From assembly GCA_018340805.1 (NCBI GenBank), contig JACMZG010001914.1, positions 12,130,667 through 12,194,666 on the forward strand: DNA of 64,000 nt, read 5' to 3'. This DNA is from Microvelia longipes (lineage: Eukaryota > Arthropoda > Insecta > Hemiptera > Veliidae). The position numbers were made by a program, and so were the translations under genes. Within the stretch, counting starts at the first letter, position 1; each line of letters begins with the position of its first letter. Under the pieces are notes generated by a model. The model was given only the letters and a program-made list of their open reading frames with translations, was not told the origin of the DNA and did no database searches. Positions 12,974 to 61,730 of this stretch are shown here, one piece after another.

Positions 12974-13015
12974 GACATAGCCAGCTTTCAATCTTAACAG
13001 ATCATCATCAGTGCC
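12974..13015 (-). ncRNA. Hammerhead ribozyme motif A1 (PLE)
   Basis: Minus strand: stem I GGCA/TGTC, CTGATGA, stem II GATCT-GTTA-AGATT, GAAA, a very short stem III (GCTGGC), then the UA cleavage position just before TGTC. All conserved core bases are present. It is near-identical to A2 and covaries with A3. Predicted cut is between 12978 and 12977 on the minus strand. Confidence 0.72.
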
Positions 13016-13237
13016 TAACCAACAAAGTAAAAAATATATTACAAAAATACTCTAAATAAAAATAAATACTAAAATAAAAAGAAATACAATATAATGAGAT
13101 GAATTAAAATAAAATAGGGAAGCAAAATAAAAATATAGACCAAATAAAAACAAATAAAGTAAACGAAATAAATTAAAGTATAAAACATTAAATGTATAAA
13201 AGTAAAAATAACTACCGGCGAGCAGCGAAGAAAAGAG

Positions 13238-13492
13238 TTAGGAGACAGCGGTTACAGTTTTGTCTAGAGGTTTGTAGCTGACTGACGGGAACCGAGTAGC
13301 CGCCGCCAACGCGCTTTGTATTAGCGTTATCTCGCCACTTTCGCCCCTCTTATTAAGTGCCTTATCACCATTTTCTTTTACGTTCTTTAAAATCTCCACA
13401 TTTTCCAAAAAGTTCATAGTATTTCCTTTCTGAGTCATGTGGAGGAAAGCAGCCTCATGCTGAAAGTTAACATGGCCTTCCTCATGTATGTG
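13238..13492 (-). pseudogene. PLE protein C-terminus (distal end of GIY-YIG region), fragment
   Basis: An 84-residue open fragment read from the head-to-head junction: HIHEEGHVNFQHEAAFLH, then GNTMNFLENVEILKN, ending KPLDKTVTAVS and a stop. The spacing of H-x-x-E-x-G-H...F...FLE-x-x-E-I is what I know from the distal end of Penelope-like GIY-YIG proteins. The reverse transcriptase and most of the endonuclease are missing, so it cannot be functional. Confidence 0.65.
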
Positions 13493-13495
13493 CTG

Positions 13496-13618
13496 GCACT
13501 TAATAAGAGGGGCGAAAGTGGCGAGATAACGCTAATACAAAGCGCGTTGGCGGCGGCTACTCGGTTCCCGTCAGTCAGCTACAAACCTCTAGACAAAACT
13601 GTAACCGCTGTCTCCTAA
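13496..13618 (+). pseudogene. Second, shorter PLE C-terminus fragment
   Basis: Forty codons and a stop: ALNKRGESGEITLIQ...KPLDKTVTAVS, the same reading as the end of the minus-strand copy but truncated about 100 bp closer to the 3' end. It shows that both arms derive from the same PLE with different 5' truncation points. Confidence 0.7.
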
Positions 13619-13837
13619 CTATTTTCTTCGCTGCTCGCCGGTAGTTATTTTTACTTTTATACATTTAATGTTTTATACTTTAATTTATTTCGTTTACTTT
13701 ATTTGTTTTTATTTGGTCTATATTTATTTTGCTTCCCTATTTTATTTTAATTCATCTCATTATATTGTATTTCTTTTTATTTTAGTATTTATTTTTATTT
13801 AGAGTATTTTTGTAATATATTTTTTACTTTGTTGTTA

Positions 13838-13880
13838 GGCACTGATGATGATCTGTTAAGATTGAAAGCTTGGCTATGTC
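13838..13880 (+). ncRNA. Hammerhead ribozyme motif A2 (PLE)
   Basis: Stem I GGCA (13838-13841) pairs with TGTC (13877-13880). CTGATGA is at 13842-13848, stem II GATCT/AGATT with loop GTTA, GAAA at 13864-13867, a minimal stem III GC..GC, and UA before the predicted cut at 13876/13877. This is a complete minimal type I hammerhead layout. Confidence 0.75.
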
Positions 13881-14599
13881 AAATATATCATTAGTGGAGA
13901 GACTCTGTTTTTTCATTACTTGAAACTCCACAACTCATTTTCCTTATTTGATCTTATTTTGTACCTACTCTCATATTTAATGGTGAACATATAATTTTTT
14001 TCTGAAAAAATGTTCAAAAACATTATTTTTTCTATACGCTGTAAAGTATAACTCATATAATATGATTTTTTTATATCAATTCATTGGCATATTATGTGTT
14101 AGTATGCTGTCTTTTATAATTTAAGAGCAATATTTTGGTTATTTATACCAAAATTAGCAGACCTAATGTGTAACATACAAAACACTGTCATCCCATCTCG
14201 CAGTAGGTGCAAGCTAAGTAATGAGTATAATAGTCCAATTCAGTCTCAAGAATTATAACATCTGAAACTTTGTGTGTCCCCCCCCCCTTTGCCTGACCAT
14301 CCCCCCTCTTCCCTATTGTAAAATACGAAAATTAATAGAATTTCCACAAAAAATGAATAGAATAAAGATAGGCAAGATAGATTATAACTCTGGCATCGAA
14401 CACCGGTAAGCACAATGGAGTTTGCAGAAATATTGAGAACCTCTTAGAAAAGGATATGCTATACCTGCCTTGTAGGCACCACATATTTAAAGTTGCGTTA
14501 AAGGTTATGAGGTATTGTTTATGGAGGTAGGTTATTGAGGTAAGGAGTAACCATCTAAAGAAGTTTACTCAAAGACCTTCTTTGGACAATTTCATGACA

Positions 14600-15218
14600 A
14601 CTAGACAAATAGCTCCCAGAGGTAGGACTAGACAAATTGCTCTCAGAGGTAGACTAGACATATGGATCTCAGAGGTGGACTAGACAAATGGCTCCCGGAG
14701 GTGGACTAGACAAATGTCTCCCAGAGGCGGTCTAGACTAATGGCTCCCAGAGGTGGTATAGACTAATGGCTCCCAGGGGTGGACTAGACTAATGGCTCCC
14801 AGAGGTGGTCTAGACTAATGGCTCTCAGAGGTGGTATAGACTAATGGCTCCCAGGGGTGGACTAGACTAATGGCTCCCAGGGTGGACTAGACTAATGGCT
14901 CCCAGAGACTAATGGCTCCCAGAGGTGGACTAGACTAATGGCTCCCAGAGGTGGACTAGACTAATGGCTCCCAGGGGTGGACTAGACTAATGGCTCTCAG
15001 AGGTGGTATAGACTAATGGCTCCCAGGGGTGGACTAGACTAATGGCTCCCAGAGGTGGTCTAGACTAATGGCTTCCAGAGGTGGACTAGACTAATGGCTC
15101 CCAGAAGTGGACTAGACTAATGGCTCTCAGAGGGTATAGACTAATGGCTCCCAGGGGTGGACTAGACTAATGGCTCCCAGAGGTGGTCTAGACTAATGGC
15201 TCCCAGGTGTGGACTAGC
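14600..15218. repeat. 26-bp minisatellite
   Basis: About 24 copies of a 26-bp unit, GTGG[AT]CTAGACTAATGGCT followed by CCCAGAG, with common variants (GTATAGAC, CAGGGGTGG, CTCTCAGAG). It forms the core of the foldback element. Confidence 0.95.
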
Positions 15219-15765
15219 CAGGTGTTATTAGCCATGCAAGATGCAAATGTCGAAGGCGATTTATTGTTTAAAAAAGCTGTCTACAAAAGAAAAATCTTCG
15301 ATGAGAAAAATTAACATTTTTCTTATTAGAGTGTATTTTAGAGCGTGGTATGGTGCTACAAGTGCGAGTAAGGCCCCAATGTCTGACCTGCATTTTATTC
15401 AATCATCAGTCAATAACGAGGCTGAGGATTTAAAAATTAGCAATAGTGCATTAAAAAGAAAAATATAACTAGGCTAGGATTAACATTATTATTATTCGTT
15501 ATTGTATATATTTATTTTATTTTGAGAATACTTTTTATTAATTAATGTTACTGATTTTAATTAATGCTTAATTTAATTAAATAAAGTAATCTGTGTGTAA
15601 GTAATAAAATAATTTTTTTATTTACTTTGGCTTGTTTTCTAAAAAACTCACTGGTATTTTCCTTGACTCATCTTTAATCCTTAGTGGACACTAGGGTATT
15701 TTACCTGAAAGTATTTGGTAAACAAGTTTTTGTCAATTACTAATGTATTGATTAACTCTATTTAA
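15219..15765. other. Inner spacer of the foldback element
   Basis: Holds a 75-codon open frame (15241-15468) with AWYGATSASKAPMSDLHFIQ near the middle. I considered a transposase relic but cannot assign it. The rest is AT-rich with nothing recognisable. Confidence 0.3.
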
Positions 15766-16461
15766 AGTTATAATCTATCTTGCCTTTCTTTATTCTATTC
15801 AGTTTTTGTGGAAATTCTATAAACTTTCATATTTTACAATAGGGAAGGGGGAGGGAGGTCCGGCAAAGGGAGGAGGGGTAACACACAAAGTTTTAGATGG
15901 CATAATAATGACTTGTTTGAAAATAAATTAAGACCAAAAACAAATTGACAATTCTTGAACCTGAATTGGACTACTAAACTCACTACTTAGCTTTCACCTA
16001 CTGCGAGATATGATGACAGTGTTTTGTATGTTACACATTTGGTACAAAAACATTATATGCCAATGAATTGATAACAAAAAACATAATACATGAGTTATAC
16101 CTAACAGTGTAGAAAAAAATGTTTTTTGAAAATTTTGTCAGAAAAAATATATATGTCCACCATTAAATATGAGAGTAGGTACAAAATAAGATCATTTCAG
16201 GTCATAATGATAAGTTCATAAAGTCTAGTTAGTGGGTTAAGTATTGTTTTTACCTAGAAAATAATGTAAAAATTAAAGAAAAAAAATTTGTCACGAACAT
16301 CACAATTTTGACGAATTCTGACACCTATAAAACTTCAAAGGCCCGGCGGCCTGTTAATCACCTCTGATAGGGCTGAAATTTTTATGGAATTATTTTTTTC
16401 ATATATTCGAACAAAATTAGGGGTTGGGAGTACAATATTACAATACAATATACTTAGCAAT

Positions 16462-16880
16462 TAGCAAAGTAGTGAGGATGAGAGTAACGAATCCAAAGTA
16501 GTGAGGATAAGAGTAACGAATCTAAAGTAGTGAGGATGAGCGTTACGAATCCGAAGTAGTGAGGATGAGCGTAACGAATCCGAAGTAGTGAGGATGAGCG
16601 TACGAATCCGATGAGCGTAACGAAGTAGTGAGGATGAGCGTAACGAATCCGAAGTAGTGAGGATGAGCGTAACGAATCCAAAGTAGTGAGGATGAGGTAA
16701 CGAATCCGAAGTGAGGATGAGCGTAACGAATCGATGAGCGTAACGAATCCGAAGTAGTGAGGATGAGCGTAACGAATCCAAAGTAGGGAGGATGAGCGTA
16801 ACGAATCCGAAGTAGTGAGGATGAGCGTAACGAATCCAAAGTAGAGAGGATGAGCGTAAAGAATCCGATGTAATGAGAAA
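16462..16880. repeat. 29-bp tandem array derived from the R1 3' end
   Basis: About 14 copies of a unit containing GAGGATGAGCGTAACGAATC and CGAAGTAGT. It is followed by AATGAGAAAAACTTTCGAGG and TACCCCGTACCTGATTTTTC, the same ending as R1 at 48620-48705, where GAGCGAAGCGAGTCCGAAG occurs. The array therefore looks like a local amplification of an R1 segment. Confidence 0.85.
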
Positions 16881-17387
16881 AACTTTCGAGGTACCCCGTA
16901 CCTGATTTTTCAAAGTGTGCCAGGTACACACAACCCTCTGATTAAACAAACCAAGACAAACTAGTTGTAAAAAACTTCGTGGGAAAAACTGCGATACGTT
17001 TGAAATTAACAGTGGTTCGGGCACGTGCTCATAGCACTGTCCCACGGCACGGGGTGCCTGATACACCTGGAGGTATTTTAATTACCAACACCACCTGAAT
17101 AGGGAAGGTCACGAGGGGACTGTGAGAACCAAACTTTAGTACTGTTAAAGGTACGTTTAAAACCACTTAGGGTGTTTAAAGAACCCTGACACCCCTAATG
17201 ACCTTCAGGCATAGAAGTTAAAGTGATCATGAACAGACTTCCTGCAGTGAAGAATAAGGAAGACCAGGAACGAATTAGGAAAAATTTGTATAAGAAAAGA
17301 GTATTAAAAGAGCTGAACTGAGATTTTTCAGTTCAGAAAGATTTTTTTAAATATTAAAATCAAACAGTCCTCACTTCAACTCTCAAC

Positions 17388-17436
17388 TGTCACCATCCGA
17401 ACTATCTCATAGGCGTTATTTCCACGATGAAAATTT
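17388..17436. repeat. R2-related fragment
   Basis: CACCATCCGAACTATCTCAT and GGCGTTATTTCCACGATGAA match 12755-12795 of R2 in the same orientation (CATCCGAACAACCTCGTAAG and the following bases). Confidence 0.5.
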
Positions 17437-17598
17437 ACTAAAAAAACAATAATAAACTATAACAAAAATTATTTCGGTCTGACTAGAAAAAATTTAAATT
17501 AAATTAACTCGATCTGCTTTTTAAATTTTGTGTAATGTTTGTGTTTCTATTTTAGTTTGTGATTGTGATATGTACTTGTAAGATTTTTGTTTAAAAGC

Positions 17599-17626
17599 CT
17601 GAAGATGGCCACAGAGTTGGCTGAAA
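17599..17626 (+). ncRNA. Hammerhead-like core E
   Basis: CTGAAGA, then stem II GGCCA-CAGAGT-TGGCT (five pairs including one G-U), then GAAA. AGC just before the core can pair with GCT after the TATATA that follows GAAA, giving a 3-bp stem I next to a UA. It lies outside the A-D repeat families. Confidence 0.5.
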
Positions 17627-17839
17627 TATATAGCTACCATAAATTGATACGCTGATTTTATTGTACATTTAGAACTATAAGCCATTTTACTTTATTTATT
17701 AAAAATGAAGGAAGAACCATACCAATTCTGTAAAAGAACAAGATCTGGGGTATATCTTGGTGTAAAGAAGCTAGTCTCTTGATAAATAATTCGTCAATCA
17801 TTTCTCACGGTCTTACTAATTATAGTCGTTAGTGTTAAG

Positions 17840-17888
17840 ACTATGTACTTATAGGTGTCCTTAATAAGGGCACCTATAAGTACATAGT
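17840..17888. repeat. 18-bp-arm hairpin
   Basis: ACTATGTACTTATAGGTG and its reverse complement CACCTATAAGTACATAGT flank a 13-base spacer. Probably a MITE end pair; no family identified. Confidence 0.7.
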
Positions 17889-18961
17889 AATATATTACTA
17901 TGTCTATAGTAATATGCAAATAATATACTGGTTTATAAATTATCATTTTTTCAGTTTTTATCTTTATTTTTGCTGAAGCCCCCGACTAGTGGTACTATTT
18001 AACTAACTCATTATGAAATAGGTGTTTTAGATAGCCCCCAAAACCAATTATTACAGTATCTTAATTTTTGTATCGCGTGTCGATTCAATAAATCAAAGTA
18101 TAAAAGTCATACCATAATATTTTTGAAATGTTTGTCTTGCTTGTGAAAGATTAACTTGCTTTTCCTTGATTCTACTTAGCGTTGAAAATAAGTGCTTTTT
18201 TCAAATAAAAATTCTTTAACAACCTCAAAAGTGTGATTTTCTGGTAAAACTCTGCTGAAACTACGAGACATTTTCTGAAAACGAAAATAATTATTTTCTT
18301 TCAGTCTTCTTTTGCTTTTATTAACCAAATTATTTTCGTAGAATCAACTCCGTATATTTTTCTTAATAATAGGGAGAAAAAGTCTAAATCTATGTAATAA
18401 AAAGAAATGGTTAAAGATTGATACTAAATTACTGCTGGACAAATGAAAATTTGCTTAAATTTACTTAACTTAAATTAAACTTAAATTTACTTTGGCATAT
18501 GTTATATGCCAAATCGATTTGCCATATAACAAAAAACAGAAGAATCACAAAAAATTCTGGCGCGGAGGTGTCCGCATGCCGGACGAATTTTCTTTAAAAT
18601 CCGTGCTTTCTTGCTCAATTCAAGTCTTGCTTAAGATTCAGGTATATGATTTAAAACCTGATCAGTAGCGCCACAACTTATTATTTCAATTTTTCGAAAT
18701 TTTTAAAAGAAAATGCGCTTATATATTATAGATTTTGCAACGCACGGCACAGAATTATTTGAAGCTCAGTTTATTCGATAAAATGCTGAAGTAGGGTTAG
18801 AAAGTAGAGAGATGAATCAAATCTATCAATTCCTTTAATTAATTTCCCTTCGATGTATCAAATCAAAACCCAAAGAATATTGAGTTAATTAATTAATTTA
18901 TAGAGTTAACTAATTTGTGTATGTTCAAGTGATATATATTCTAAATTGGGTCTTGCTGTGT

Positions 18962-18963
<2 letters not shown>
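17889..18963. other. AT-rich stretch without recognised features
   Basis: No gene or RNA was seen. A slightly GC-richer spot near 18555-18600 is too short to interpret. Confidence 0.5.

Positions 18964-19056
<93 letters not shown>
18964..19056. repeat. (TA)n microsatellite
   Basis: About 90 bp of uninterrupted TA dinucleotides. Confidence 0.95.
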
Positions 19057-19058
<2 letters not shown>

Positions 19059-19094
19059 TTATAAAAGAAAGATGGTAATTGGATTTAATATAAG

Positions 19095-19267: not shown

Positions 19268-19377
19268 ATAAAATTAATTTTAAGAAGTTTCTTTTTGTGG
19301 ACTTATAAAAAAATATATAAATAAAAACAGGTTAATTACACAAAAGTCCTTTATTGTTTAATATATAATAACTAAGC

Positions 19378-19404
19378 TTTCGACTAAAAATTAGTCATCA
19401 TCAG
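19378..19404 (-). ncRNA. Hammerhead-like core B2
   Basis: Minus strand CTGATGA, stem II GACTA/TAGTC, GAAA. It is the left-arm partner of B3. No clear stem I. Confidence 0.5.
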
Positions 19405-19869
19405 AGTTTAAAAAATATAAAACAAAATACAATTTTACAAACTACTTCATATTGCACCTTGGTATGGTTTGGTAAGCTATGTTTAAAAAACCGTTAAAAA
19501 CTGTTACATTGAAGAATTTAAAAAAAATCAGTGTTACCAATAATTTTAGTTGAAAAAACAATATTTTAAACTAAATTGAGATTTTTAAAATTTAAGAGTT
19601 CCTAATTAAATTTGCGTAAATGGAGCTTAATGATGTAGAAAAATTAAGCTCCATTTACGCAAATTTAATTAGGAACTCTTAAATTTTAAAAATCTCAATT
19701 TAGTTTAAAATATTGTTTTTTCAACTAAAATTATTGGTAACACTGATTTTTTTTAAATTCTTCAATGTAACAGTTTTTAACGGTTTTTTAAACATAGCTT
19801 ACCAAACCATACCAAGGTGCAATATGAAGTAGTTTGTAAAATTGTATTTTGTTTTATATTTTTTAAACT

Positions 19870-19896
19870 CTGATGATGACTAATTTTTAGTCGAAA
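19870..19896 (+). ncRNA. Hammerhead-like core B3
   Basis: CTGATGA at 19870-19876, stem II GACTA/TAGTC, GAAA at 19893-19896. It faces outward, 63 bp from the right boundary of the inverted dimer. Confidence 0.5.
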
Positions 19897-19971
19897 GCTT
19901 AGTTCTTATATATTAAACAATAAAGGACTTTTGTGTAATTAACCTGTTTTTATTTATATAAAATTAATTTT

Positions 19972-21236: not shown

Positions 21237-21326
<90 letters not shown>

Positions 21327-27741: not shown

Positions 27742-29509
27742 GGGTCAATCCATATCAAGTGTCCCAGACTTGGGTGCTCTAAAAAAATAGATTTTAATGA
27801 TTATTTTGCTATTGATACCCATATCTATGGTGAGTAAAAAATGACCAATATAAATTTTTTATGGTCACCCGTTCTTTTTTTATGGTCATCCGACCCTAAA
27901 ATTTAGTAATTTTTGACCTTCAGATAAGCAGCCGATACTCGGTTCTCGCTTGTACTACAGCAAAAATATGAACGGATCTGTTTAAAGCAAGCTTTGAGCT
28001 ACATTTGGCCCTTTGACACTTTTACTCTATGACCGCTCCTTGGGGGGGCAATGGGGGCTCCAAATTTTAGGGTTTCTTAAAAAAATATGAAAATTTTAAC
28101 ATTTTTTTATAATATGAAGAAATTAGAATTAAGAGCTCCCAATTTTTTTAGGAGTTACTTACTTTAAGACAAGCAATCAGCACAATTTTCAAAGCATTAA
28201 TATAATTCGTTTATGAGCTATGATTTTTAGAAAATCCATATTTTTTAATTTTTGGTCATTTTTGACCTTCAATATCTCCCTTGGACATGTATACTTTTTA
28301 ACAAAAATCATATCACAAAGACCCCTTACCAGTGTCCACATAAGCCACTAAAAATATTGTTGTGTATTTGCCCACAAGCAAAGTTATAGCTAAATCATGT
28401 ATGTGTGATTTTCCAAATATCAAATAATATATATTTTTTTATAATGTAAAGAAATCTAAATGAAGAGCTCGCAATTTTTTTAGGAGTTGCTTAGATTAAG
28501 ACAAACATCCAACCAAATTTTTAAAGCTTTGATTTAATTCGTTTATGAGCTATGATTTATTGAAAAATATTAATTTTTAAATTTTGGTCATTTTTGACCT
28601 TCAATATCTCTCTTGGACATGTATAATTTTTAACAAAAATCATATCACAAAGACCTCTTACCAGTGTCCAATAAATAATAGCTCATAAACGAATTAAATC
28701 AAAGCTTTAAAAATTTGGTTGGATGTTTGTCTTAATCTAAGCAACTCCTAAAAAAATTGGGAGTCTTCATTTAGATTTCTTTACATTATAAAAAAATATA
28801 TATTATTTGATATTTGGAAAATCACACATACATGATTTAGCTATAACTTTGCTTGTGGGCAAATACACAACAATATTTTTAGTGGCTTATGTGGACACTG
28901 GTAAGGGGTCTTTGTGATATGATTTTTGTTAAAAAGTATACATGTCCAAGGGAGATATTGAAGGTCAAAAATGACCAAAAATTAAAAAATATGGATTTTC
29001 TAAAAATCATAGCTCATAAACGAATTATATTAATGCTTTGAAAATTGTGCTGATTGCTTGTCTTAAAGTAAGTAACTCCTAAAAAAATTGGGAGCTCTTA
29101 ATTCTAATTTCTTCATATTATAAAAAAATGTTAAAATTTTCATATTTTTTTAAGAAACCCTAAAATTTGGAGCCCCCATTGCCCCCCCAAGGAGCGGTCA
29201 TAGAGTAAAAGTGTCAAAGGGCCAAATGTAGCTCAAAGCTTGCTTTAAACAGATCCGTTCATATTTTTGCTGTAGTACAAGCGAGAACCGAGTATCGGCT
29301 GCTTATCTGAAGGTCAAAAATTACTAAATTTTAGGGTCGGAGGACCATAAAAGTGACCATAAAAAAAGAACGGGTGACCATAAAAAATTTATATTGGTCA
29401 TTTTTTACTCACCATAGATATGGGTATCAATAGCAAAATATTTATCAAAATCTATTTTTTTAGAGCAACTTTTTTTATTTTTTTTGGGACACTTGATATG
29501 GATTGACCC
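27742..29509. mobile_element. 1.77-kb palindromic element with TATAA target duplication
   Basis: Ends GGGTCAATCCATATCAAGTG and its exact inverse at 29490-29509; TATAA flanks both sides (27737-27741 and 29510-29514). The arms are near-identical over about 800 bp, with an asymmetric spacer near 28557-28677. Each arm contains two related internal units (about 28098-28345 and 28440-28672: TTTTTTTAGGAGTT, GTTTATGAGCTATGATTT, GACCTTCAATATCTC, ACCAGTGTCCA). No coding sequence. The 5-bp duplication and long arms do not match a superfamily I can name. Confidence 0.85.
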
Positions 29510-35443: not shown

Positions 35444-37725
35444 GTAATTGATTTATATAAATATTAATTTACGTTGAAACCGAATTACTTCATTGCAATG
35501 TACCATAAATTATAAAAAGAAATAAAATAAATGTATAAATATAAATTTGACTATTTTCTGTTATTTTAATGTTTTTATATTACAACTTGTAAACAATTTT
35601 TAGAAGTTATTGTACGATATTTAAAATTTAACTTATGTTTGTTATTGCCATATAAAACTGTTATCAACATTTGGTTTAACTCGATATATTATAAAATTGT
35701 TTTAAAACTTTTCTAACAATTGTTATATGACTGTTCTTATTATTTTAAATTGAAAATATATATTTTAAGTGTAAATGACTTTTAAAAAAATAAACTTAAA
35801 AACTTATACTTATTAATTAATAACATTAATAAACTTAAAAATAAACTTCCTTCATTTAATTTTCAGTCAACTATAATAATTTATTAAAATTAATTGGATG
35901 ATTATATTATATGTCATCAGAACATTTTACTCAAATCAAAATACTTTACTAAATTTGAAATATGAATTTATACTTCTTTTAAAAGTATCTACTCCTATAC
36001 TTTACTTAATACTTAAAGTGTCCTCTTGAGGAAAAATGCGAAGTCAACACATTCTTTATTGACTAAAACGTTGACTCTACAACATGTAGCTATAGAATCC
36101 CCACATTTAACAAAGACAGTTATTTTAACATAGTAGTAGCAAAGTGTTAAATTTTATATCTATTAACTCTATGATGCTAACTCTATAAATTTTATATCTA
36201 TTAGCTCTATAATGCTAACTCTATAAATTTGTTTATCTATCTATTATATCTAGAATACTTTTTATGTTATTTAATAAGTAATTAAATTTCTATATTGACG
36301 CGTTCGTCCACCATAAAAAGACGTAATCCTTTAATTAATTGATACTTTAGATTAATTTATTACTTAGACAATATTATATTTACGTCAATAGAAAATAACC
36401 TTTTCTAGCTTTTTGCCAATTAAACTGATAAATAAAAAAATATGAAACCATGTCAATAACACTCTGTTAAACCTCTTAATTTCTCTTTCCATTTTACACC
36501 TTATCGTAAGAAAAAAAGAACGATAAAAATGGCAAAAGACTTATTAACGTAGAACCTTAACAACTCTATATTTGATTACACTAATTGCTAGTCATACCGA
36601 CTGCCGTTTTAATTAAATTATTTTACATGTATCATACACTATTATTTTTTTTTTTTTTTTTTTATCATACACTATTAATTATAAATATAAATATGATGCT
36701 TGACTCTAAAATCTTTATAAGGGTATTATAATATGAATAAAATAATTTCTTGATTTAATTGAGCTAAATATATTATATTGCCTTATTCGTTAATAAATAA
36801 CTAACTTCTTTAATGAGCTAGTCTTGTATGAGCCATTCATGTATAAATATTATTTTATTTATGTAATAATAATATTACATTAATATTAGTCTTAAAATGT
36901 CAATTATACGCGAATTTTTGAGGTGTTAATGTAGTGTTAACAAACTGTAATTGCTATTATTATTATTGAGATTTATGCCTGAAAGACTTTCCATGCACCC
37001 TATAACTGCCAATATATAAATGATGATGAAACTTATGATTATAATAATAGCGGCCCAAATAGTGATCCCTGCGGGACTCCTGTGCATACTGTATTTTCTT
37101 TTTTATGAACCGTTTTGTTGTCACCTTAAGTTTATATCTAATGTGTTTCTTTGTTTTGTTTTTTCAGGTTATGAAACCAATGTTAGAAAGAAAAAGAAGG
37201 GCTAGAATCAACAGGTGCCTAGATGAGCTTAAGGAACTTATGGTCGTGGCTCTTCAAGCAGAAGGCGAGAACGTCAGTAAATTAGAAAAAGCTGATATTC
37301 TAGAATTTACTGTTAGACATTTACACAAATTGAGAAAACAAGAAGCCGAAGACGGTCAAAAGTACAAAGCTGGTTTTACGCGTTGCGCTGCTGAAGTGTC
37401 GCAGTACCTCGGTAACGCACCTGAATCAAGAGTTAGCGTTCTCCAACACCTTAGCACTTGTATGAGAGTTATTGATAGTGATGGCTCTACATCATCTAGA
37501 GACGCTCATTCACCACAAAACGTACAGCATCCACACCACCAACAAGTTCATCCACATTCACCAATCCCGCATCACCCCCATTCACCAATCCCGCATCACC
37601 CACACTCTCCAATTCCTCATTCACCAATCTCTCACCACCCACACTCACCCATTCCTCATCATCTTCACCAAATTCCACCTCAATCATCGAGTTATATTCA
37701 TGATCCAGTATGGAGACCTTGGTAA
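35387..37725 (+). CDS. E(spl): Enhancer-of-split / HES family bHLH-Orange repressor
   Basis: Two coding exons, 35387-35443 and 37168-37725, give a 204-residue protein. Residues 1-19 ([19 protein letters not shown]) are exon 1. The bHLH domain spans about 20-77 and has the family proline in the basic region ([20 protein letters not shown]). The Orange domain is about 84-121 ([17 protein letters not shown]). A His/Pro/Ser-rich linker follows, and the protein ends in VWRPW, the Groucho-recruiting tetrapeptide WRPW with its usual preceding residue. Members are nuclear repressors induced by Notch through Su(H). The ATG choice is supported by the E(spl)-like TYQYRK-VMKP junction across a phase-0 intron; an in-frame ATG at 37105 lies in intron sequence. 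Which E(spl) paralogue it is cannot be decided here. Confidence 0.93.
37168..37725 (+). CDS. E(spl): E(spl) exon 2
   Basis: Acceptor TTTTTTCAG before 37168, then 185 codons and TAA. It carries nearly all of the bHLH, the Orange domain and WRPW. The intron (35444-37167) is about 1.7 kb with no recognised feature apart from a T-run at 36643-36663. Confidence 0.93.
37555..37668 (+). repeat. Coding minisatellite in E(spl) (PHSPIPHH repeats)
   Basis: An imperfect tandem repeat around CCACATTCACCAATCCCGCA encodes five H-P-H-S-P-I-P/S-H-type units between the Orange domain and WRPW. The histidine/proline linker is unusual and probably varies in length between alleles. The frame is kept. Confidence 0.85.
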
Positions 37726-39346: not shown

Positions 39347-39505
39347 ATATATATAAATATATTTACCTATTTTAAACATTAATTTTTGTCTTTTTTTTGT
39401 AAATATTTTAATATCCCCTGTCTCATACTAAATATAACTGAACTAATAATCAATAGAAAAAAGCCTGTCCCCAATGTTTATTTATAAAATTTAATCAAAA
39501 TCGGC

Positions 39506-39530
39506 TTTCAACCTAAACGGCCATCATCAG
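39506..39530 (-). ncRNA. Hammerhead-like core D1
   Basis: Minus strand: CTGATGA, stem II GGCC...GGTT (two G-U pairs), GAAA. The core is intact; stem I was not found. Confidence 0.42.
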
Positions 39531-39691
39531 TACCAGAGAGAAGAATATATCGATGTAACTGAGCCTTATAATAGCATGGCTGGACTGATTTTATGATATC
39601 GTCTCAGTTATGATATTATAAGACTCACCTATATCAATCAATAAGAAAAAGCCTCTTTACAATGTTCATTTATTAAATCTAATCAAATTGT

Positions 39692-39717
39692 CTTTTATCT
39701 TAAACGGCCATCATTAG
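39692..39717 (-). ncRNA. Decayed hammerhead-like core D2
   Basis: Same context as D1, but the core reads CTAATGA and the GAAA is changed; presumably inactive. Confidence 0.3.
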
Positions 39718-39843
39718 TGCCAGAGAGAAGAATATATCGATGTAAGTGAGTCTTATAATATCATGACTGGAGTGATCTTATGATATCGGCTCAATCATGA
39801 TATTTTAAGACTCTCCTACATCGATAAATTCTTCTCTCCGGCA

Positions 39844-39868
39844 CTGATGAAGACCGTTTAGGTTGTAG
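39844..39868 (+). ncRNA. Decayed hammerhead-like core D3
   Basis: CTGATGA is intact, stem II GACC/GGTT is possible, but GTAG stands where GAAA is needed; presumably inactive. Confidence 0.3.
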
Positions 39869-40339
39869 ATTAGATTTAATAAATAAAGATTGTTGAGAGC
39901 CTTTTTTTTACAGATTATTATTATACACTCCATTTGCGCTTCACCTTATTAACAAAACTGAACTTTCTGAAAGAAGAATCAGAGATGTGGATGGTATTAA
40001 CAAGAGTTATCGATCTATCTGCTATACACATTATAAATGCTTCTTAATATGACTTATGCCGGCATTGTCCTATGCTAACTTAATAAATTATGTTCTCATG
40101 TGCTAAACGTCAATAAATATCATGATTATAAAATTTTATTACGTCATAATGAATGTAAATACTGCGCTATATTTATGAAATTAGTTTTATTTATTATTTA
40201 CAAATTTTATCGTCAGAATTGTGTGGCAGATCTTTAAAGTAGCAGCCGTTGCCACTAATGATGACATTTCTGTTTATGAAAAAACTTACGACACTAAAAT
40301 GATTACCGTCGTAATAGGTTTTTACTTTTACTAATATAA

Positions 40340-42285: not shown

Positions 42286-42308
42286 TATATTTCTTTATAG
42301 CAAAGCGC

Positions 42309-42333
42309 TTTCAACCTAAGAGGCCATCATCAA
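42309..42333 (-). ncRNA. Decayed hammerhead-like core D4
   Basis: Minus strand: TTGATGA (first core base changed), stem II GGCC/GGTT, GAAA. Single isolated PLE-type end at about 42270-42350. Confidence 0.35.
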
Positions 42334-42349
42334 TGCTAGCTGTTGAATA

Positions 42350-43318: not shown

Positions 43319-43435
43319 TAATAAATAACTAAGCTTTCGACTAAAAATTAGTCATCATCAGAATTTAACAAATATAAATTATAAAATAAAATAAAAATTT
43401 TTACAAACTACTTCATATTGCCCCTTGGTATGGCA
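43319..43435 (-). mobile_element. Family B fragment
   Basis: Minus-strand match to the 4611-4877 element from the core to ATACCAAGGGGCAATATGAAG, ending in a (TA)n tract. The terminal block ATAAGTCCACGAAAAAGAAA recurs in the opposite orientation at 43613-43632, just beyond that tract. Confidence 0.6.
43335..43361 (-). ncRNA. Hammerhead-like core B4
   Basis: Identical to B1-B3 through CTGATGA, GACTA/TAGTC and GAAA. Confidence 0.45.
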
Positions 43436-55738: not shown

Positions 55739-55921
55739 TATAACATACGGTTATAATAAGTTGACAGCCCGAGAAAATAATGCCAGGGAGCCAAAGAGGT
55801 TAGTTCTGTATGTTAAACCATGCCCAACAATTCCATATTGAACCAACTTAGTTCTTGTATATAGTTCCTCAGCACTATTGTCCCACGGTGTCAATTGATT
55901 ATGACCGTATGCTATACTATA
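55739..55921. mobile_element. MITE family M3, copy 4
   Basis: TATAACATACGGTTATAATA and AAGTTGACAGCCCGAGAAAA on the left; CCCACGGTGTCAATTGATTA and GACCGTATGCTATACTATA on the right. More diverged than the others. Confidence 0.7.
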
Positions 55922-56007
55922 GTAACTTCATCTAAAATTAACGATTTCTTCAGACTTTTCAAGGTTACTTTTAAAACATAACCTACACTGCAGTGCCTAT
56001 ATCAGAA

Positions 56008-56213
56008 AAAATGCCCGTTTTAGGGTCTTTAGGCCCATCAGGGTATTCACCCTGCGGGAACCACCTCAGGTGGGGTGCATCTACTACACTCAAAGAATTA
56101 AATAAAGTTGGCGAAATCTTTATAATACAAATAAACCAGGGTCTGGGGTTGCAAACCCCAGACCTCCGGTGCCGAAATCGAGTGCCTTTACGATTACGGC
56201 CACGGAGGTAGAT
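56008..56213 (-). mobile_element. tRNA-derived SINE with 12-bp target duplication
   Basis: CCTATATCAGAA flanks it at 55996-56007 and 56214-56225. Read on the minus strand the head is tRNA-like (ACCTCCGTGGCCGTAATCG as the A-box side, GGGGTTTGCAACCCC as the B-box side), followed by a unique body and the conserved 3' block CACCTGAGGTGGTTCCCGCA, GGGTGAATACCCTGATGGGC and GGGCATTTTTT. Length about 206 bp. The T-run at the end could act as a Pol III stop. Confidence 0.82.
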
Positions 56214-56225
56214 CCTATATCAGAA

Positions 56226-57239
56226 TAATTAAGCAATTTATAAACTATCCAGTATTTTATTTTTTTTATTTTCGCGAAGAATGATAATAAAATAATTTAT
56301 TGTTGTTAAAACTGTGTACAACAATAAACAAAACAAAGTTATATATTTATTTATATTTGTTTTTTGCCAATATTATATCTTTGTTTACACTTTTTTGGAA
56401 ACCATTTGCTTGGTTTTATGTTGTTAGTGATATTACGAATTGGTATCTTCTTTTTACTTTATCATCGTTAAATTATAAGGTATGTTAATTGACATAGATT
56501 GCTTCCCTACCTCATACGAATTGGGTAAGCACTGCATTGGCAAAAAAAACACCCACTTTAAACCCCCCACTTAATAGAGAAAAAATTCTCTATCAAAAAC
56601 TGAAAACAAAATAGACAAATTTAGAAGTCAAATAGTTTCAGGTTCTTAAACTTCAAATTAATATCTTGTAAGATTTGATGTTGGAAAAACATATTAAAGG
56701 GGGTGGGTCAAACATTTAAATAATGATGAAGTGTGAGCACGTGTGAGGTAGTGGCGTCATTCCATTAAACATTTCTCTTAATATTTACAGGTAGCGGAGG
56801 TACAAGTGAGTCAGATAGTAAAGGTAGGTGTGGGAGAAGTATGCCAAGACAGTTCCCACGGGGCTAGCAGAGGCTTTAACTCAGTGGCTTCCCTACTGGG
56901 TATCAGTGGCGAGGAGGGGGGAATCAGCGGTCCTTTGTAGAGTATTGCTATGTAGTCAAGTTCCTTTCTCAAGGCCCGTGCCACATTAAACTATCCTTTT
57001 TTTTCATTAACATATTAATACTTTTTTTTGTAACTTACCTTCTTAATACACGTTTATTCAGAAAATTTATAATTTTAATAAGCATGTCGTAGTTTTGCTT
57101 AGTAATGCCCTAAACCACATTTGAATTCATATAATATCATCAAAAGGGTTTATTTTTAATATAACATACATACATAACAACATAACCTAAATTACTTCAT
57201 TAACTTCAACAATCCAAACTATTTATGTTTCTTAATAGA
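56226..57239. other. Stretch without recognised genes
   Basis: A GC-richer patch at 56790-56945 has no recognised content; the rest is AT-rich. Confidence 0.45.
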
Positions 57240-57550
57240 ACCCGTTTAACAACAAATAAAACATAAACAACATAAACATACATCAACAACAAATATAATA
57301 AAAAAATAGTCAAATAAATAAATAAATAATCAATAACAAATAATAATCAATAAATAAATAAACATGAATAATCAATAACAAATAAAATAATATAACAATA
57401 ATTAATAAAAATAGTATATAATATAAAATTAATAGATATAATATAAAAATAATTACAATAAATTAATAGATATAATATAAAAATAATTACAATAAATTAA
57501 TGAAAATAATACTAAAACAAAAAATAAATATAATAAATTAATAAATAAAT
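57240..57550. repeat. A-rich low-complexity AAATAA tract
   Basis: Long run of AATAAATA, AACAAATA and ATAATATA motifs with almost no G. Confidence 0.9.
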
Positions 57551-57699
57551 ACATGTTATCATAATGCTATACTTTTCATCATTATTATGACTTTCTAAAC
57601 GCTTTAAGAAGCCGAAAATCAACTTGTCCTGTTTTTACTAACCTTATAGTATCAAAGGAAACGTTTAAATGTTTGTAGATACTTAATCACTTGATTTTG

Positions 57700-57835
57700 G
57701 CAAGGGGTCCGAGGTTCGTAACCCAAGCTAGTTGTATTTCCAACTTTATTTGATACATAGAAGATATTGAATGAAACCCACCTGAGGTAGTTCCCTTAGG
57801 GTGAATATCCTGATTGCCTTAAAGGCTCTAAAACG
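57700..57835 (+). mobile_element. SINE copy 2 (partial)
   Basis: GGTCCGAGGTTCGTAACCC is the B-box side of the tRNA head; CCCACCTGAGGTAGTTCCCT and TAGGGTGAATATCCTGATTG match the conserved 3' block of the 56008-56213 SINE. No target duplication found. Confidence 0.65.
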
Positions 57836-58367
57836 TGCATATATTTATTTCTTACTTTGTCTTACTGCCCTAACTGCCTAAGTATAGTTTATAGCAAATA
57901 ACTTTATTTCGTAGATACGGGATACTATAAATTCATGGATCGTATTAAGTAAGATAGTTAATAAAGTATAACCTTCTCGACGAACTATTATTTTATAATA
58001 TTTCACTAAATTAAACTTAAATAAAACAGTTTTTTACCAAATGATTTTTCAAATATTATTTTTTAAGTGCATCTTCATTATCATACAATGAAATCACAAT
58101 TTAATTAAATATATTTTTGTTTATAACTTCCCTGTAACCGGAATGAACCTTCACAATAAAACACGCCATGTTTTGGCGGGGTCACTATTGACGTCATCTG
58201 ACTCGATCGACTACACAAATACGGTGCAAGAACCGGATCGTATTAAATGCGTTTGGAATACGATTACTTGTTAAATACGCTGTGTTTACGTAGTAATGAA
58301 CAATATGAAGTGCACCCCAAGTGCGTTAAAGTTAGATCATCGTTATTGTTATATATAATCTATCGTT

Positions 58368-58373
<6 letters not shown>

Positions 58374-58443
<70 letters not shown>

Positions 58444-58509
58444 TATTATATTATATATTTTATTATATTTATATTTTATTTATATATATATATATATATA
58501 TTATATTAT

Positions 58510-58547
<38 letters not shown>

Positions 58548-58558
58548 ATATATTATAC
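58374..58558. repeat. Compound (TA)n tract
   Basis: TATATC and TA repeats with TTATTATATT interruptions, about 185 bp, running directly into an M4 MITE end. Confidence 0.93.
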
Positions 58559-58563
58559 TAGAG

Positions 58564-58858
58564 GGAGAGATATATACTAGAGGGGGCATAGTCCATCTTA
58601 ATGCATTGAGAAGCCAAGCCTGAAACATCATTTAGGGGCTCTGGGTAACCTAAATAACCTTCTAATAAATCAATTGATTTTGGCAATCCCGATCATTATT
58701 GGTTGTGTTTTGATTAGTATTTTTAACGTTCTTTTATATAAGATATTGTAATTTTGTACTGATTATTTCATTATATTTATAAGCAAAGGTGTTCAGGTTA
58801 TTTTTCCGACGTTTTAAAATTTAACCTATAGGGGCACTCTAGTAATAATATCTCTATG
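58564..58858 (+). mobile_element. MITE family M4, copy 5
   Basis: AGAGATATATACTAGAGGGG to CTCTAGTAATAATATCTCTA, with the standard interior (TGAAACATCATTTAGGGGCT, AATCAATTGATTTTGGCAAT, GGTGTTCAGGTTATTTTTCC). Confidence 0.78.
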
Positions 58859-59337
58859 ATTGCTCATTTTAATTTTACAAAATTATCGAAACGTTAAAGG
58901 ACAAAAGAAAATAATAAAAATGTGTATTAATACTTAATTTTAACAAATTGGAAAAACTAACAAGTTCTAAAGCATGTTTCCTCAATACTATTTTTATAAA
59001 TCCATACGTAGTCAATCAGTTTTAAAAGAACTTAATATACTTTTAATGGTTTTAAATATTAATTTCGTGATAAAAAAATGTGTACAATTAAAATCTTAAT
59101 AATATTAAATATTGCTGTAGGAAAAATGATTTATCAGGAATTATACACTTTATTTATATAAGGTCAAAATATTCTATCTATTTTAATTCATCAACAAATA
59201 TGTAGAAACTTTGACTAACAGGTATTATCTCAGCTCTCTAATTTATCCATTTATACGTTCAATTTGGACGTATAGATTTTTACGTTCCACCAATAGCAAT
59301 GTTGGATTTTAAAAAAAAATCTTTTATTTTCGGCTCT
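58859..59337. other. Stretch without recognised features
   Basis: AT-rich; nothing supported. Confidence 0.5.
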
Positions 59338-59541
59338 GGAAGTCTGAGGATCGCGGCACGGGCAGCGACCCAGTTCAGATACGGAACTTAGAACCTCTCT
59401 AAGTTTATATGAATATTATTTGTAACAAACGATTTCATTAACTTTAATTAGTACTTACTTAAGAATAGTGGATAAAACTCACCTGTAGTGGTTCCCCCTG
59501 GGTGAATACTCAGGTGGGTCTAAATGCCCTAAAACTGGCAT
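59338..59541 (+). mobile_element. SINE copy 3 (partial, diverged)
   Basis: ACTCACCTGTAGTGGTTCCC, CCTGGGTGAATACTCAGGTG and CCCTAAAACTGGCATTTT match the SINE 3' block; the head region around 59340-59400 is poorly preserved. Confidence 0.6.
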
Positions 59542-59685
59542 TTTATTTTTTGTGATTCACAGCTGATTTTCTTCGAAACGACCTATTTAATAGCGGTTGA
59601 AATATATTAATAACAACTTTATTCAAAAAAACATTAAGACTTAAACACTATTTAAAAAAATATAGGGATTAACTGACCTTAATGT

Positions 59686-59700
59686 ATATGTATATATATA

Positions 59701-59752
<52 letters not shown>
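59686..59752. repeat. (TA)n microsatellite
   Basis: TATATGTATATATA... about 65 bp. Confidence 0.93.
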
Positions 59753-59753
<1 letters not shown>

Positions 59754-60230
59754 TGAGAAAGATGTTTAATTGAGTATTTAAGTTGAATTGACCTTGTTTG
59801 ATGCACTAGTTGAAAGCTCCGATTTTTTCAGTATTGCATAGCTGGGCTACCTACGCTTCATCGCCAAATTCGTTCGCCTCTTACTAATAAGAAGCTGCTA
59901 ACTACCTACAACTACCTTTATATTTTTGTCCGCAATATAGAATACAATACTTTACTTAATTTTATGTTTAAGAGAATTTTTAATAGAAAATTACGCTTAA
60001 ACAACAACAAAAAAGTATCCGCGAATATTCTTTAATTTAAGTAAATAACCGAATGGAAACACGTTCGTGTTTTTTATTGAAAAAGAAGTACGTAACAAAT
60101 AAAAGTCTTCAGTTATAGATATGATTGACATAAAAAGGAAAAGAAAAAACTATTATGTTCTATAGTATAGTATATAGAAAGGGACTAAAGTGATCTTTAT
60201 TGACTAGATTGACATCGTATTGACACAAAG
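59753..60230. other. Stretch without recognised genes
   Basis: AT-rich; nothing supported. Confidence 0.5.
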
Positions 60231-60260
60231 TTTCACTGCTTTTATACTGGACTTCTTCAG
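60231..60260 (-). ncRNA. Degenerate hammerhead-like core G
   Basis: Minus strand: CTGAAGA, 19 nt, GAAAC, the same spacing as the family C cores, but stem II does not pair well. Probably a relic of another PLE family. Confidence 0.3.
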
Positions 60261-61387
60261 TCTATATATAGTAGACTTTCCTACGTCACATTTTTTACCA
60301 TAGAAATAAGCTAGAGTCATTCTTTTATGAAATCTATTCAAAAGGAAGTAAATATACCGTTCAGCTTGATCTGAGCCTTGTTTCTGTGTTTATTCTTTTG
60401 GTAACAAAGAATTGCAAATTTAAAAAGAATCTCTCAAAAATTGTACAACAGTTGACTGTATTTTGATATAGAATGAATTTAAAGACACTCTACAGGAAAT
60501 AAGACACTGTAAGAAAACGGGGACTGAAAGGAAAATAGGCACTACACAAAAAAAGACACTGAGCAGGAAAAAGGCCTAAACAGGCCTTACGGGGATCTCA
60601 GAAGAAAAAAAATAAATTAATTTTTTTCCAAATCAAGATTTTTTTAAGGCACAAACAAAAATGTATGAAATAGTCGAAATAATTTAATTAAATATTTTTT
60701 TTTAAATTCTAATCTTGTATAAACCATATCAATGATTATGTACAGTATGACATAAGAGAAATAGTGTAAAAAAGTATGAACAGTATGTAATTTTTATCAT
60801 AGATAATACATGATAAAATAGGAGGGGCGATAAAGAGCGTTTAGGAGAAATTAAGTTTGTAATACCGACAAAAAGGGAACCTGGAACTAACCGGCCAAAG
60901 GGCTCTGATTCTATGTTTTTGCACTTCTCTTGTGATTTCTGCTTCTTGGTTTGAAGTAGTATAATAATTATTTTTGTGACATTTATAAGTTATAAATTGT
61001 TTTTTTTTTACTTGTATTGTGATGAATGATCTAAACTCATTTGTACTTCTGTGACTAGTGAACTTCTTCTACATTGGAAAAGTTTAACATGAGTCTATAC
61101 TTAAATGTATTTAAAATCAAAAGGTACATACAAGTCAGTGTTGTGAATTCATTTCACCAATTTGCGTTTTAAATTATTTTATATTTTTCTTATCTTGTTC
61201 CTAAATAGAAAAAGTATAATTTTTTGTGTGCAATCCATAAATACACAATTTTTATAGCCAACTGATTTTAATTAGTTATACTAAACCCGCAGAAAGAGAG
61301 CGCTTTGTTAGCTTACTGTACAAAAGACAAGAGGCCCAGCTAAATTTTTACGTGGGCGGGGGGTCCCCAAATCTGAAGTTCCGCCAC
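60261..61387. other. Stretch without recognised features
   Basis: No supported gene or repeat. Confidence 0.45.
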
Positions 61388-61730
61388 TGTACAAATACAA
61401 TCTTACAAAAAACTATACAAAAGACTTAAGAACTTAAAAATAAACGAAAAAATGAAAAATTACAAGTTATTATAAACGTGTAATAGTTAGTGTAGTTATT
61501 AAAAAGTTGTTTTTGTTTGTAATAACTTGCGATTTTTGATTTTTTTACGTTTTTAAGTCTTTTGTATAGTTTTTGTAAGATTGAATTTTATACTTTGTTG
61601 GTTAGGCACTGATGATGGACTGTTAAGTCTGAAAGCTGGCTCTGTCATTATACTTTAACATCAGTGGAGAGACTTGTTTCTTATTTTTCCTTATATATTT
61701 GGAGTCCACTACTCTATTTTTTATTATGTC
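61388..61730 (+). mobile_element. Family A PLE terminus with foldback 5' part
   Basis: The arms AATCTTACAAAAAACTATAC (about 61391) and GTATAGTTTTTGTAAGATTG (about 61563) form an inverted repeat of about 75 bp. They are followed by a hammerhead and the tail GTGGAGAGACTTG...GGAGTCCACTACTC, as in 12937-13948. No coding part remains. Confidence 0.65.
61605..61646 (+). ncRNA. Hammerhead ribozyme motif A3 (PLE)
   Basis: Stem I GGCA/TGTC, CTGATGA at 61609-61615, stem II GGACT-GTTA-AGTCT, GAAA at 61631-61634, short stem III GCTGGC, and UC before the predicted cut at 61642/61643. Compared with A1/A2, stem II pairs 2 and 3 change A-U to G-C and U-A to A-U, so pairing is kept by double substitutions. 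Confidence 0.78.

What the first reader, a model, noticed from the sequence alone, without database searches (positions are those of the whole stretch)
12974..61646. A family of hammerhead ribozymes with compensatory stem II changes
Three loci (12974-13015 minus, 13838-13880 plus, 61605-61646 plus) have every part of a minimal hammerhead: stem I GGCA/UGUC, CUGAUGA, stem II, GAAA, a tiny stem III and UH at the cut site. Stem II differs between A1/A2 (GAUCU/AGAUU) and A3 (GGACU/AGUCU) by two paired substitutions that keep pairing. That is seen directly and is hard to explain without selection for the fold. Hammerheads in Penelope-like elements are established knowledge; these particular copies and their arrangement may be undescribed.
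Basis: partly seen in the sequence, partly recalled or inferred. Interest (0 to 1): 0.9.

Follow-up and report, generated by a model that had tools for sequence, protein, structure and literature searches.

The report
Hammerhead-bearing retroelement copied from both ends
Three hammerhead motifs, predicted to be self-cutting RNAs, sit in this genome inside Penelope-like jumping elements, and 46 of 50 paired insertions examined have one short and one long end, which suggests that each was likely copied twice from a single RNA, once from each side of the cut in the host DNA.

Summary
The three hammerheads are real and at the stated coordinates: a descriptor scan finds exactly these three in the window and none in 100 randomised windows. 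Compensatory stem II changes hold genome-wide: 39 of 40 stem II pairs are standard across ten sequence types, 0 of 10,000 shuffles match; the F1-F3 pattern has 2,977 matches against 1 control. Rfam models miss them.

[quoted passage not shown]). A1 and A2 are the two arms of one insertion, flanked by a 13-bp duplication.

The larger result is an insertion rule. Of 50 head-to-head pairs, 46 have one short and one tailed end; among the 38 with a detected target duplication, 38 of 38. A GT-AG intron ends in hammerhead stem I; both arms agree on splicing in 37 of 37 scorable pairs. Most spliced arms begin at one site within TCAGT. I infer one sense RNA reverse-transcribed twice, one start site per target strand. 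This argues against the published antisense self-priming idea (PMC3846280) and extends in-vitro two-strand priming (PMC11167929). Self-cleavage is untested.

The parts
12974..13015 (-). Hammerhead A1 (family F1): stem I GGCA/UGUC, core CUGAUGA, extra U, stem II GAUCU/AGAUU, GAAA, stem III AGC/GCU, predicted cut after A of GCUA
13838..13880 (+). Hammerhead A2 (family F1), the other arm of the same insertion; one extra U in loop III
61605..61646 (+). Hammerhead A3 (family F2): stem II GGACU/AGUCU, predicted cut after C of GCUC
12935..13948 (.). One head-to-head Penelope-like insertion: left arm (-) with short end, right arm (+) with long, tailed end
12924..12936 (.). Left copy of the 13-bp target-site duplication TGATCTTATTTTG (overlaps the aligned terminus by 2 bp)
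   Evidence: empty site read in the older inverted copy around 16182-16201
13949..13961 (.). Right copy of the target-site duplication
13241..13492 (-). Last 84 codons of the Penelope-like ORF in the left arm (stop at 13238-13240)
   Evidence: at least 151 matches in the genome, 21 identical over all 84 residues, the window's own included; for the domains of a longer relative
13216..13283 (-). Exon 1 (68 nt), beginning at the A of TCAGT where most spliced copies start
13015..13215 (-). GT-AG intron, 201 nt; its last G is the first base of hammerhead stem I
   Evidence: indices; exact spliced junction in copies elsewhere
13641..13838 (+). The same intron in the right arm, unspliced (198 nt)
13894..13931 (+). 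Predicted stem GUGGAG/CUCCAC whose loop holds the short start site; the rest of the tail lies 3' of it
   Evidence: of 48 long arms both strands were found in 40, and 30 of these keep it exactly
61391..61725 (+). F2 insertion carrying A3: long right end; left arm broken off inside the intron, no target duplication seen by eye
19282..19959 (.). Second head-to-head insertion in the window, different family F14: long left end, short right end, 12-bp duplication AAAATTAATTTT
19369..19408 (-). F14 hammerhead: stem I AACU/AGUU, stem II GACU/AGUC, no stem III (AGCU)
19866..19905 (+). F14 hammerhead, other arm
4748..4787 (+). F14 hammerhead, single copy with long end
43326..43365 (-). F14 hammerhead relic
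39493..39534 (-). F6 hammerhead, exon-like upstream context, stems I and III decayed
39681..39871 (.). Two further decayed F6 hammerheads, 39681-39721 (-) and 39840-39871 (+), in an inverted repeat
42298..42337 (-). Decayed hammerhead with a substituted core base

Best explanation
[quoted passage not shown] Shown by sequence: the motif and its compensated stem II; a long frame with RVT_1 and weak GIY-YIG matches; a pseudo-LTR with a hammerhead on both sides of one such frame; a GT-AG intron ending in hammerhead stem I; copies with and without the intron; head-to-head arms with 3' ends outward; one short and one tailed end in 46 of 50 pairs; target duplications of 8-16 bp in 38. Inferred: transcription starts at the A of TCAGT; the leader is spliced; the endonuclease cuts both strands; each 3' end primes at one of two sites about 33 nt apart, 3' of the hammerhead; cDNAs can run to the RNA 5' end and are joined head to head, sometimes with filler. 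The template was uncleaved, since copies span the predicted cut site. The hammerhead would release unit RNA from tandem transcripts or control translation; its use in vivo is not shown.
For: Fold: ten stem II types, 39 of 40 pairs standard, 0 of 10,000 shuffles; 91 of the 100 listed matches (of 513 counted) 4/4 paired. Four families reached through the ORF and not through the hammerhead: 4 of 4 carry one, that of L099 cut short by the fetched stretch. Element; hammerhead on both sides of one long frame. Two-ended start: 46 of 50 pairs one short, one long; 38 of 38 with a target duplication above the 95% null (24 long-left, 14 short-left); seen also in one F7 and one F14 insertion. One RNA: splicing state agrees in 37 of 37 scorable pairs, 18 spliced and 19 unspliced. 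Separate events: 48 distinct lengths among 50 pairs. Sense template: 503 spliced F1 junctions, 0 controls; 23 of 31 spliced F1 arms start within 6 nt at TCAGT, none upstream, and 0 of 31 arms typed unspliced start there. Biochemistry: PAc protein cuts and extends both strands, starts at two adjacent internal sites and uses mainly unprocessed RNA (PMC11167929, parts read; passages).
Against: Minimum-energy folds of six 42-mers do not favour the full hammerhead. Rfam finds no hammerhead. On alignment A1, stems I, III and two stem II pairs hardly exceed shuffles: 94.1% of cells paired against 92.2% (6 of 500), pairs with two-sided change 1 against 1.1 (464 of 500), though the covariation score does (3 of 500); stem I pairs in 88% of cells with one-sided changes only. 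4 of 50 pairs are homotypic, none with a detected duplication. Private variants shared within pairs are weakly enriched: 14 against 8.1 (254 of 5,000 shuffles) and 3 against 1.1 (466 of 5,000); the F3 set, 42 against 20.5 (5 of 5,000), mixes spliced and unspliced pairs. So two RNAs from one source element are not excluded. Loci were first-listed or ORF-picked, not a random sample.
Confidence: 0.72

Rival explanations
1. Head-to-head insertions arise by self-priming on an antisense template, as proposed for rotifer Penelope elements: the copy folds back and primes its own second arm.
For: Proposed in PMC3846280 (passages read); explains inverted repeats and intron retention, and 19 of 37 scorable pairs keep the intron.
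Against: 18 of 37 scorable pairs are spliced in both arms; the two ends differ by a defined tail in 46 of 50 pairs; in L055 and L068 both arms start at the same RNA 5' site with extra bases between them.
Confidence: 0.08
2. Two separate RNAs, loaded on an asymmetric enzyme dimer, are copied, one from each start site.
For: Fits the short/long rule; PAc protein is predicted to be a dimer (PMC11167929); shared private variants within pairs are only weakly enriched.
Against: Needs both RNAs to be in the same splicing state every time, 37 of 37, unless both come from one source transcript pool.
Confidence: 0.2
3. The inverted unit is a DNA MITE that moves as a whole, so the short and long ends are merely inherited.
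For: Inverted ends and target duplications resemble a MITE.
Against: 48 distinct lengths among 50 pairs and differing central junctions, duplications of 8-16 bp, spliced copies, and linkage to a reverse transcriptase frame. One junction is shared by two L011 pairs, apparently a local duplication.
Confidence: 0.03
4. The motif is conserved as a protein-binding or coding element and is not a working ribozyme.
For: A frame is open through the motif in F8, by my reading in F5 and F9 over the listed stretch, and in the F1 copy L105. Predicted folds are weak. The anole hammerhead cleaved only with protein (PMC11167929).
Against: Stem II changes on both sides across types, and CUGAUGA, GAAA and the cut-site U are invariant in 17 of 17 aligned variants, though most of these were found with patterns that fix the core.
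Confidence: 0.15
5. Chance resemblance.
For: None found.
Against: 0 hits in 12.8 Mb of randomised sequence; 2,977 and 513 genome matches against 1 and 0 reversed-pattern controls.
Confidence: 0.01

Closest known systems
Type I hammerhead motifs of Penelope-like elements (Cervera and De la Pena 2014; seen only as a citation, not held)
   Same: Minimal type I core in the pseudo-LTR, reduced or missing stem III, no tertiary loops recognised (PMC7761336 and PMC6155905, passages)
   Different: At least ten stem II types in one genome, compensated; an extra U at A9-U-G; the intron's 3' end inside stem I
PAc, Poseidon of Anolis carolinensis (PMC11167929)
   Same: Start codon at the start of stem II with C3 and G8 before it; two internal start sites that define the tail; both target strands cut and extended; mainly unprocessed RNA as template
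   Different: Here the rule is read from genomic insertions: one start site per end in 38 of 38, and arms agree in splicing. The parts and passages I read report neither
Penelope families of the rotifer Adineta vaga (PMC3846280, passages)
   Same: Inverted pseudo-LTRs, a 31-bp tail optionally on one of them, duplications of 8, 9 and 10 bp in the passages, introns kept
   Different: There the tail is called optional and antisense self-priming is proposed; here about half of the scorable pairs are spliced and the tail is on one end only in 46 of 50
Retrozymes and satellite hammerheads of animals and plants (PMC4918200 passages; PMC7229834 start of abstract in a listing)
   Same: Non-autonomous repeats with hammerheads; one tandem array of 77-78-bp units here (L009)
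   Different: Here the sampled copies are mostly dispersed head-to-head inserts of a Penelope leader

Membership tests
Hammerhead ribozyme, type I | Core C3-U-G-A-N-G-A9, G12-A-A, U at 16.1 and H at 17 | tested here: met
   A1-A3; core and U16.1 invariant in 17 of 17 aligned variants
Hammerhead ribozyme, type I | Three helices around the core | tested here: inconclusive
   Stem II strongly supported; stem I 88% and stem III 98% of cells paired, but changes one-sided; monomer folds do not favour it
Hammerhead ribozyme, type I | Stem II begins directly with a G-C pair after A9 | tested here: not met
   A U intervenes in 107 of 109 classified F1-F3 copies (the search pattern contains it) and the first pair is G.U in F1-F3 and one decayed F6 copy, G-C in the other 10 of 17 aligned variants. 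An extra core nucleotide is known from a viroid hammerhead (title in the reference list of PMC6155905; its content recalled). I therefore call these hammerhead-like and predicted active
Hammerhead ribozyme, type I | Match to an Rfam hammerhead model | tested here: not met
Hammerhead ribozyme, type I | Self-cleavage | not testable with these tools
   needs a bench assay
Penelope-like element with endonuclease | Reverse transcriptase | tested here: met
   RVT_1 E 1.9e-9 in L081, above cutoff
Penelope-like element with endonuclease | GIY-YIG endonuclease | tested here: inconclusive
   E 0.011, below the Pfam cutoff; GVY...YVGQTGR motif in the translation, its reading recalled
Penelope-like element with endonuclease | Pseudo-LTRs on both sides of the ORF, here with hammerheads | tested here: met
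   L105 and L081 flank one 838-codon frame
Penelope-like element with endonuclease | Tail at one inverted pseudo-LTR and target duplications | tested here: met
Retrozyme | Circular unit RNA flanked by cut sites | not tested
   no RNA data available

The most novel reading that the evidence does not exclude
Penelope-like elements integrate by double target-primed copying of a single capped, spliced or read-through, uncleaved RNA: the two strands of a staggered cut each prime at one of two adjacent sites, so every insertion is born as an inverted twin with exactly one tail.
Probability: 0.55. Interest if true: 0.87.

Novelty: new variant of a known kind. Interest (0 to 1): 0.72.

Why it matters
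How Penelope-like elements, described as a third class of eukaryotic retroelements (PMC11167929), insert is still open; antisense self-priming was the stated hypothesis for their inverted copies (PMC3846280). The short/long rule and the splicing agreement can be counted in any genome that holds these elements, and they separate the models directly. They would also explain the 'optional tail' and predict that a single RNA serves both strands. For ribozymes, the genome offers at least ten natural stem II types of one minimal hammerhead, some of them with an open reading frame through the motif, for activity tests.

Tried and rejected
Rejected: chance; MITE; a rival fold in which CACUGAUGAU pairs with AUCAUUAGUG downstream, because the F4, F5, F7 and F8 sequences that I read keep only CAC/GUG of it, while GUGGAG is better explained by pairing with CUCCAC. 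Rfam gave nothing. The 84-residue ORF end alone matched no Pfam family above cutoff (one sub-threshold hit, E 0.026, taken as chance). Dimeric hammerheads through the self-complementary AGCCGGCU were considered; the search patterns force that sequence in F4-F13, so I draw no statistic from it. A genome-wide two-by-two count of spliced against unspliced copies, with and without sequence upstream of the start site, could not be run: the server stayed busy. A test for templates cut at the hammerhead (arms beginning at the cut site) was planned and not run; one arm, L046 left, begins near it. Alignment A1 misplaces the third stem II pair between 5-bp and 4-bp types, so I counted stem II from its base in a script and used A1 only for stems I and III and two pairs of stem II. 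Of the ten types, two (its F11 and F13) are single listed copies, and its F13 (C510:65307428) is not the F13 of alignment A1 (L045). The listing was pasted and trimmed by hand.

Dropped rows: one search left out L001-L009 (overlapping stretches of the tandem array) and L070 (the window itself); 6 of 115 copies fit no family; 13 of 50 pairs had an arm that could not be scored for splicing. L011 holds two F1 pairs with one junction, apparently a local duplication; only one of them is among the 38, both are among the 37 and their four arms among the 31. Two of the 31 arms typed unspliced there begin at or past the hammerhead and so say nothing about the intron. The F1 count of unspliced copies includes 13 from the L009 array.
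Full report
OBSERVATION. The three hammerhead motifs are at the stated coordinates. A mechanical descriptor scan returns exactly these three loci in 64 kb and none in 100 first-order Markov randomisations of the window. Rfam returns no hammerhead at gathering threshold or at E up to 10. A covariance model built from 17 variants, which include A1- and A3-like sequences, scores A1-A3 at E 1e-12 or better and lists 11 loci in the window at E up to 10, the weakest at 0.0055.

GENOME FAMILY. The window lies in a 665-Mb genome of 1,470 contigs; an HLH plus Hairy_orange gene in the window says animal, and arthropod is my guess. The pattern RCTGATGATGRHYTGTTAARDYYGAAAGC with up to 3 mismatches has 1,460 forward and 1,517 reverse matches, reversed control 0 and 1. 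I fetched 60 stretches covering most of the 100 listed places; with the window they hold 115 copies by a fuzzy pattern, classed F1 68, F2 16, F3 25, unclassed 6. Stem II is GAUCU/AGAUU in F1, GGACU/AGUCU in F2, GGUUU/AAACU in F3.

MORE TYPES. A second pattern, with C before GAAA, has 257 forward and 256 reverse matches, control 0 and 0; 100 were listed. They add GGUCU-GUA-AGACC (F4), GAUC-GUGA-GGUC (F5), GACC-GUUUA-GGUC (F6), GGCUG-UUAA-CAGUC (F7), GAUC-GAGC-GAUC (F8), GAUC-GAGA-GAUC (F9) and others. Of the 100 listed, 91 have all four basal pairs and 97 the first three. In 25 distinct variants plus F1-F3, 104 of 112 pairs are standard, shuffled mean 92.5, 0 of 10,000 shuffles as high; in ten types, two of them single copies, 39 of 40, again 0 of 10,000. 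Types are related, so shuffles overstate significance, but pair 3 alone is U-A, A-U, U.G and C-G in different types. On alignment A1, stems I and III change on one side only, and over those nine pairs the percentage paired (94.1 against 92.2, 6 of 500) and the count of two-sided pairs (464 of 500) give little; the covariation score exceeds all but 3 of 500 shuffles. Four families were reached through the ORF, not through the hammerhead (F2 L099, F4 L100, F3 L101, F5 L102): 4 of 4 carry it, though L099 ends inside the motif.

CORE ODDITY. A U stands between A9 and stem II in 107 of 109 classified F1-F3 copies; all my patterns contain it, so its constancy is partly imposed, but the ORF-reached families have it too. 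[quoted passage not shown] In F8 the frame from that AUG is open for 45 codons, past the likely end of the copy; F5 and F9 read open over the listed stretch. In F1 that AUG meets a stop in the loop; in L105 another frame runs open through the hammerhead to ATG-AGC (MSNTSEV..), then stops about 100 codons later, and the 838-codon frame lies in a different frame, so that copy looks frame-shifted.

THE ELEMENT. The left arm of the window insertion carries the last 84 codons of an ORF. The genome has at least 151 matches to it, 21 identical over all 84 residues, the window's own among them. A long relative, L081, has RVT_1 (E 1.9e-9) and a weak GIY-YIG (E 0.011, below cutoff). Upstream of that frame, L105 holds another hammerhead pseudo-LTR. 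This is the pseudo-LTR/ORF/pseudo-LTR order of Penelope-like elements.

ONE INSERTION, NOT TWO. A1 and A2 are arms of one insert, 12935-13948, with TGATCTTATTTTG on both sides; an older inverted copy of the host sequence near 16182-16201 shows the empty site. The short arm ends ..TTTTATTTCA, the long arm continues about 33 nt further. A3's insertion keeps a long right end; its left end is lost.

INTRON. Upstream of the hammerhead, copies have either an intron end (..TTTGTTGGTTAG) or an exon (..GCTGCTCGCCG). In the window both are present, separated by a GT-AG intron of 201 nt whose last G is the first base of stem I. F1 spliced junctions number 503 with up to 3 mismatches, control 0. Spliced and unspliced contexts occur in all three subfamilies: F1 37 and 31 (13 of the 31 from one tandem array), F2 5 and 9, F3 9 and 14, with 4 more unresolved. 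Of the 30 ORF-picked loci L069-L098, some overlapping, 28 have a hammerhead match; every F1 match there has the intron end beside it, and the one exon-like context, L090 at 614, belongs to F6.

START SITE. In 32 F1 pairs, 62 of 64 arms aligned to the window reference. Of 31 spliced arms, 23 begin within positions 211-216, at the A of TCAGT; the other 8 are shorter, none longer. Of 31 arms typed unspliced none begins there, though two of these start at or past the hammerhead. I read this as the 5' end of the RNA; TCAGT as an insect initiator is recalled, and a cap is inferred.

END RULE. In 50 head-to-head pairs, 27 are long-short, 19 short-long, 3 short-short, 1 long-long. With a target duplication above the 95% null of shuffled flanks: 24 long-short, 14 short-long, 0 homotypic. 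The two end types are about equally common (48 long, 52 short of 100), so 38 of 38 by independent choice has probability near 4e-12. The same appears in one F7 insertion (L104) and one F14 insertion at 19282-19959 of the window, with AAAATTAATTTT on both sides. The pairs are nearly all separate events: 48 distinct lengths among 50.

SPLICING AGREEMENT. 37 of 37 scorable pairs agree, 18 spliced and 19 unspliced; 13 pairs had an unscorable arm. Of these 37, 30 come from hammerhead-picked loci and the window, 7 from ORF-picked loci; two of the spliced ones share a junction.

MECHANISM. Both results suggest one RNA copied twice. PAc protein cleaves and extends both strands, starts internally at two adjacent sites that define the tail, and uses mainly unprocessed RNA (PMC11167929; parts 1 and 2 of 4 read, passages elsewhere). 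The authors saw no difference in start site between strands; that fits, since here either side may be long. The start region is predicted to fold as GUGGAG/CUCCAC with the short site in the loop; both strands were found in 40 of 48 long arms and 30 of the 40 keep it exactly, 33 with six standard pairs. F14 has GGACUU/AAGUCC instead. The published antisense self-priming idea (PMC3846280, passages) predicts intron retention and does not predict spliced twins with one tail.

AGAINST. Predicted folds are weak, Rfam is silent, sharing of private variants within pairs is only slightly above chance, and nothing here shows cleavage. The hammerhead-picked sample comes from first-listed places on a few contigs.

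LITERATURE. The searches were seen as listings (titles and starts of abstracts); none of these, nor the passages that I read, states the one-tail rule or the splicing agreement. Only open-licence papers are held; Cervera and De la Pena 2014 was not held, and Arkhipova et al. 2003 was seen only as a citation. Introns and tails in Penelope elements are known; the rule may be implicit in figures that I could not see.

Noticed in passing
L009 (G000:C496:65500-69000), 907-1631 and 1790-2493: Tandem array of 77-78-bp units, each holding an F1 hammerhead with its flanks: a hammerhead satellite in two blocks.
   Followed up: partly
window 19282-19959, 4748-4787 and 43326-43365: A second hammerhead family (F14) without stem III, not in the given finding, with its own short/long insertion and duplication.
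   Followed up: partly
window 39441-39900: Three decayed hammerheads of family F6 in nested inverted repeats with an exon-like upstream context.
   Followed up: partly
window 12859-12936 with 16182-16259, and 13942-14030 with 16113-16201: An older large inverted repeat into which the F1 element inserted; its other arm gives the empty site.
   Followed up: partly
window 27775-29467: A 603-nt inverted repeat, 99% complementary, 269 nt apart, unidentified.
   Followed up: no
window 37066-37725: HLH plus Hairy_orange gene, an E(spl)/HES-type regulator by its domains.
   Followed up: no
window 16419-17081: 29-bp repeat array that is open in more than one minus-strand frame; likely a repeat artefact rather than genes.
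   Followed up: no
loci L069-L098: ORF-linked F1 hammerheads were seen only in unspliced context, while short copies starting at TCAGT are spliced; why read-through templates escape splicing is unexplained.
   Followed up: partly
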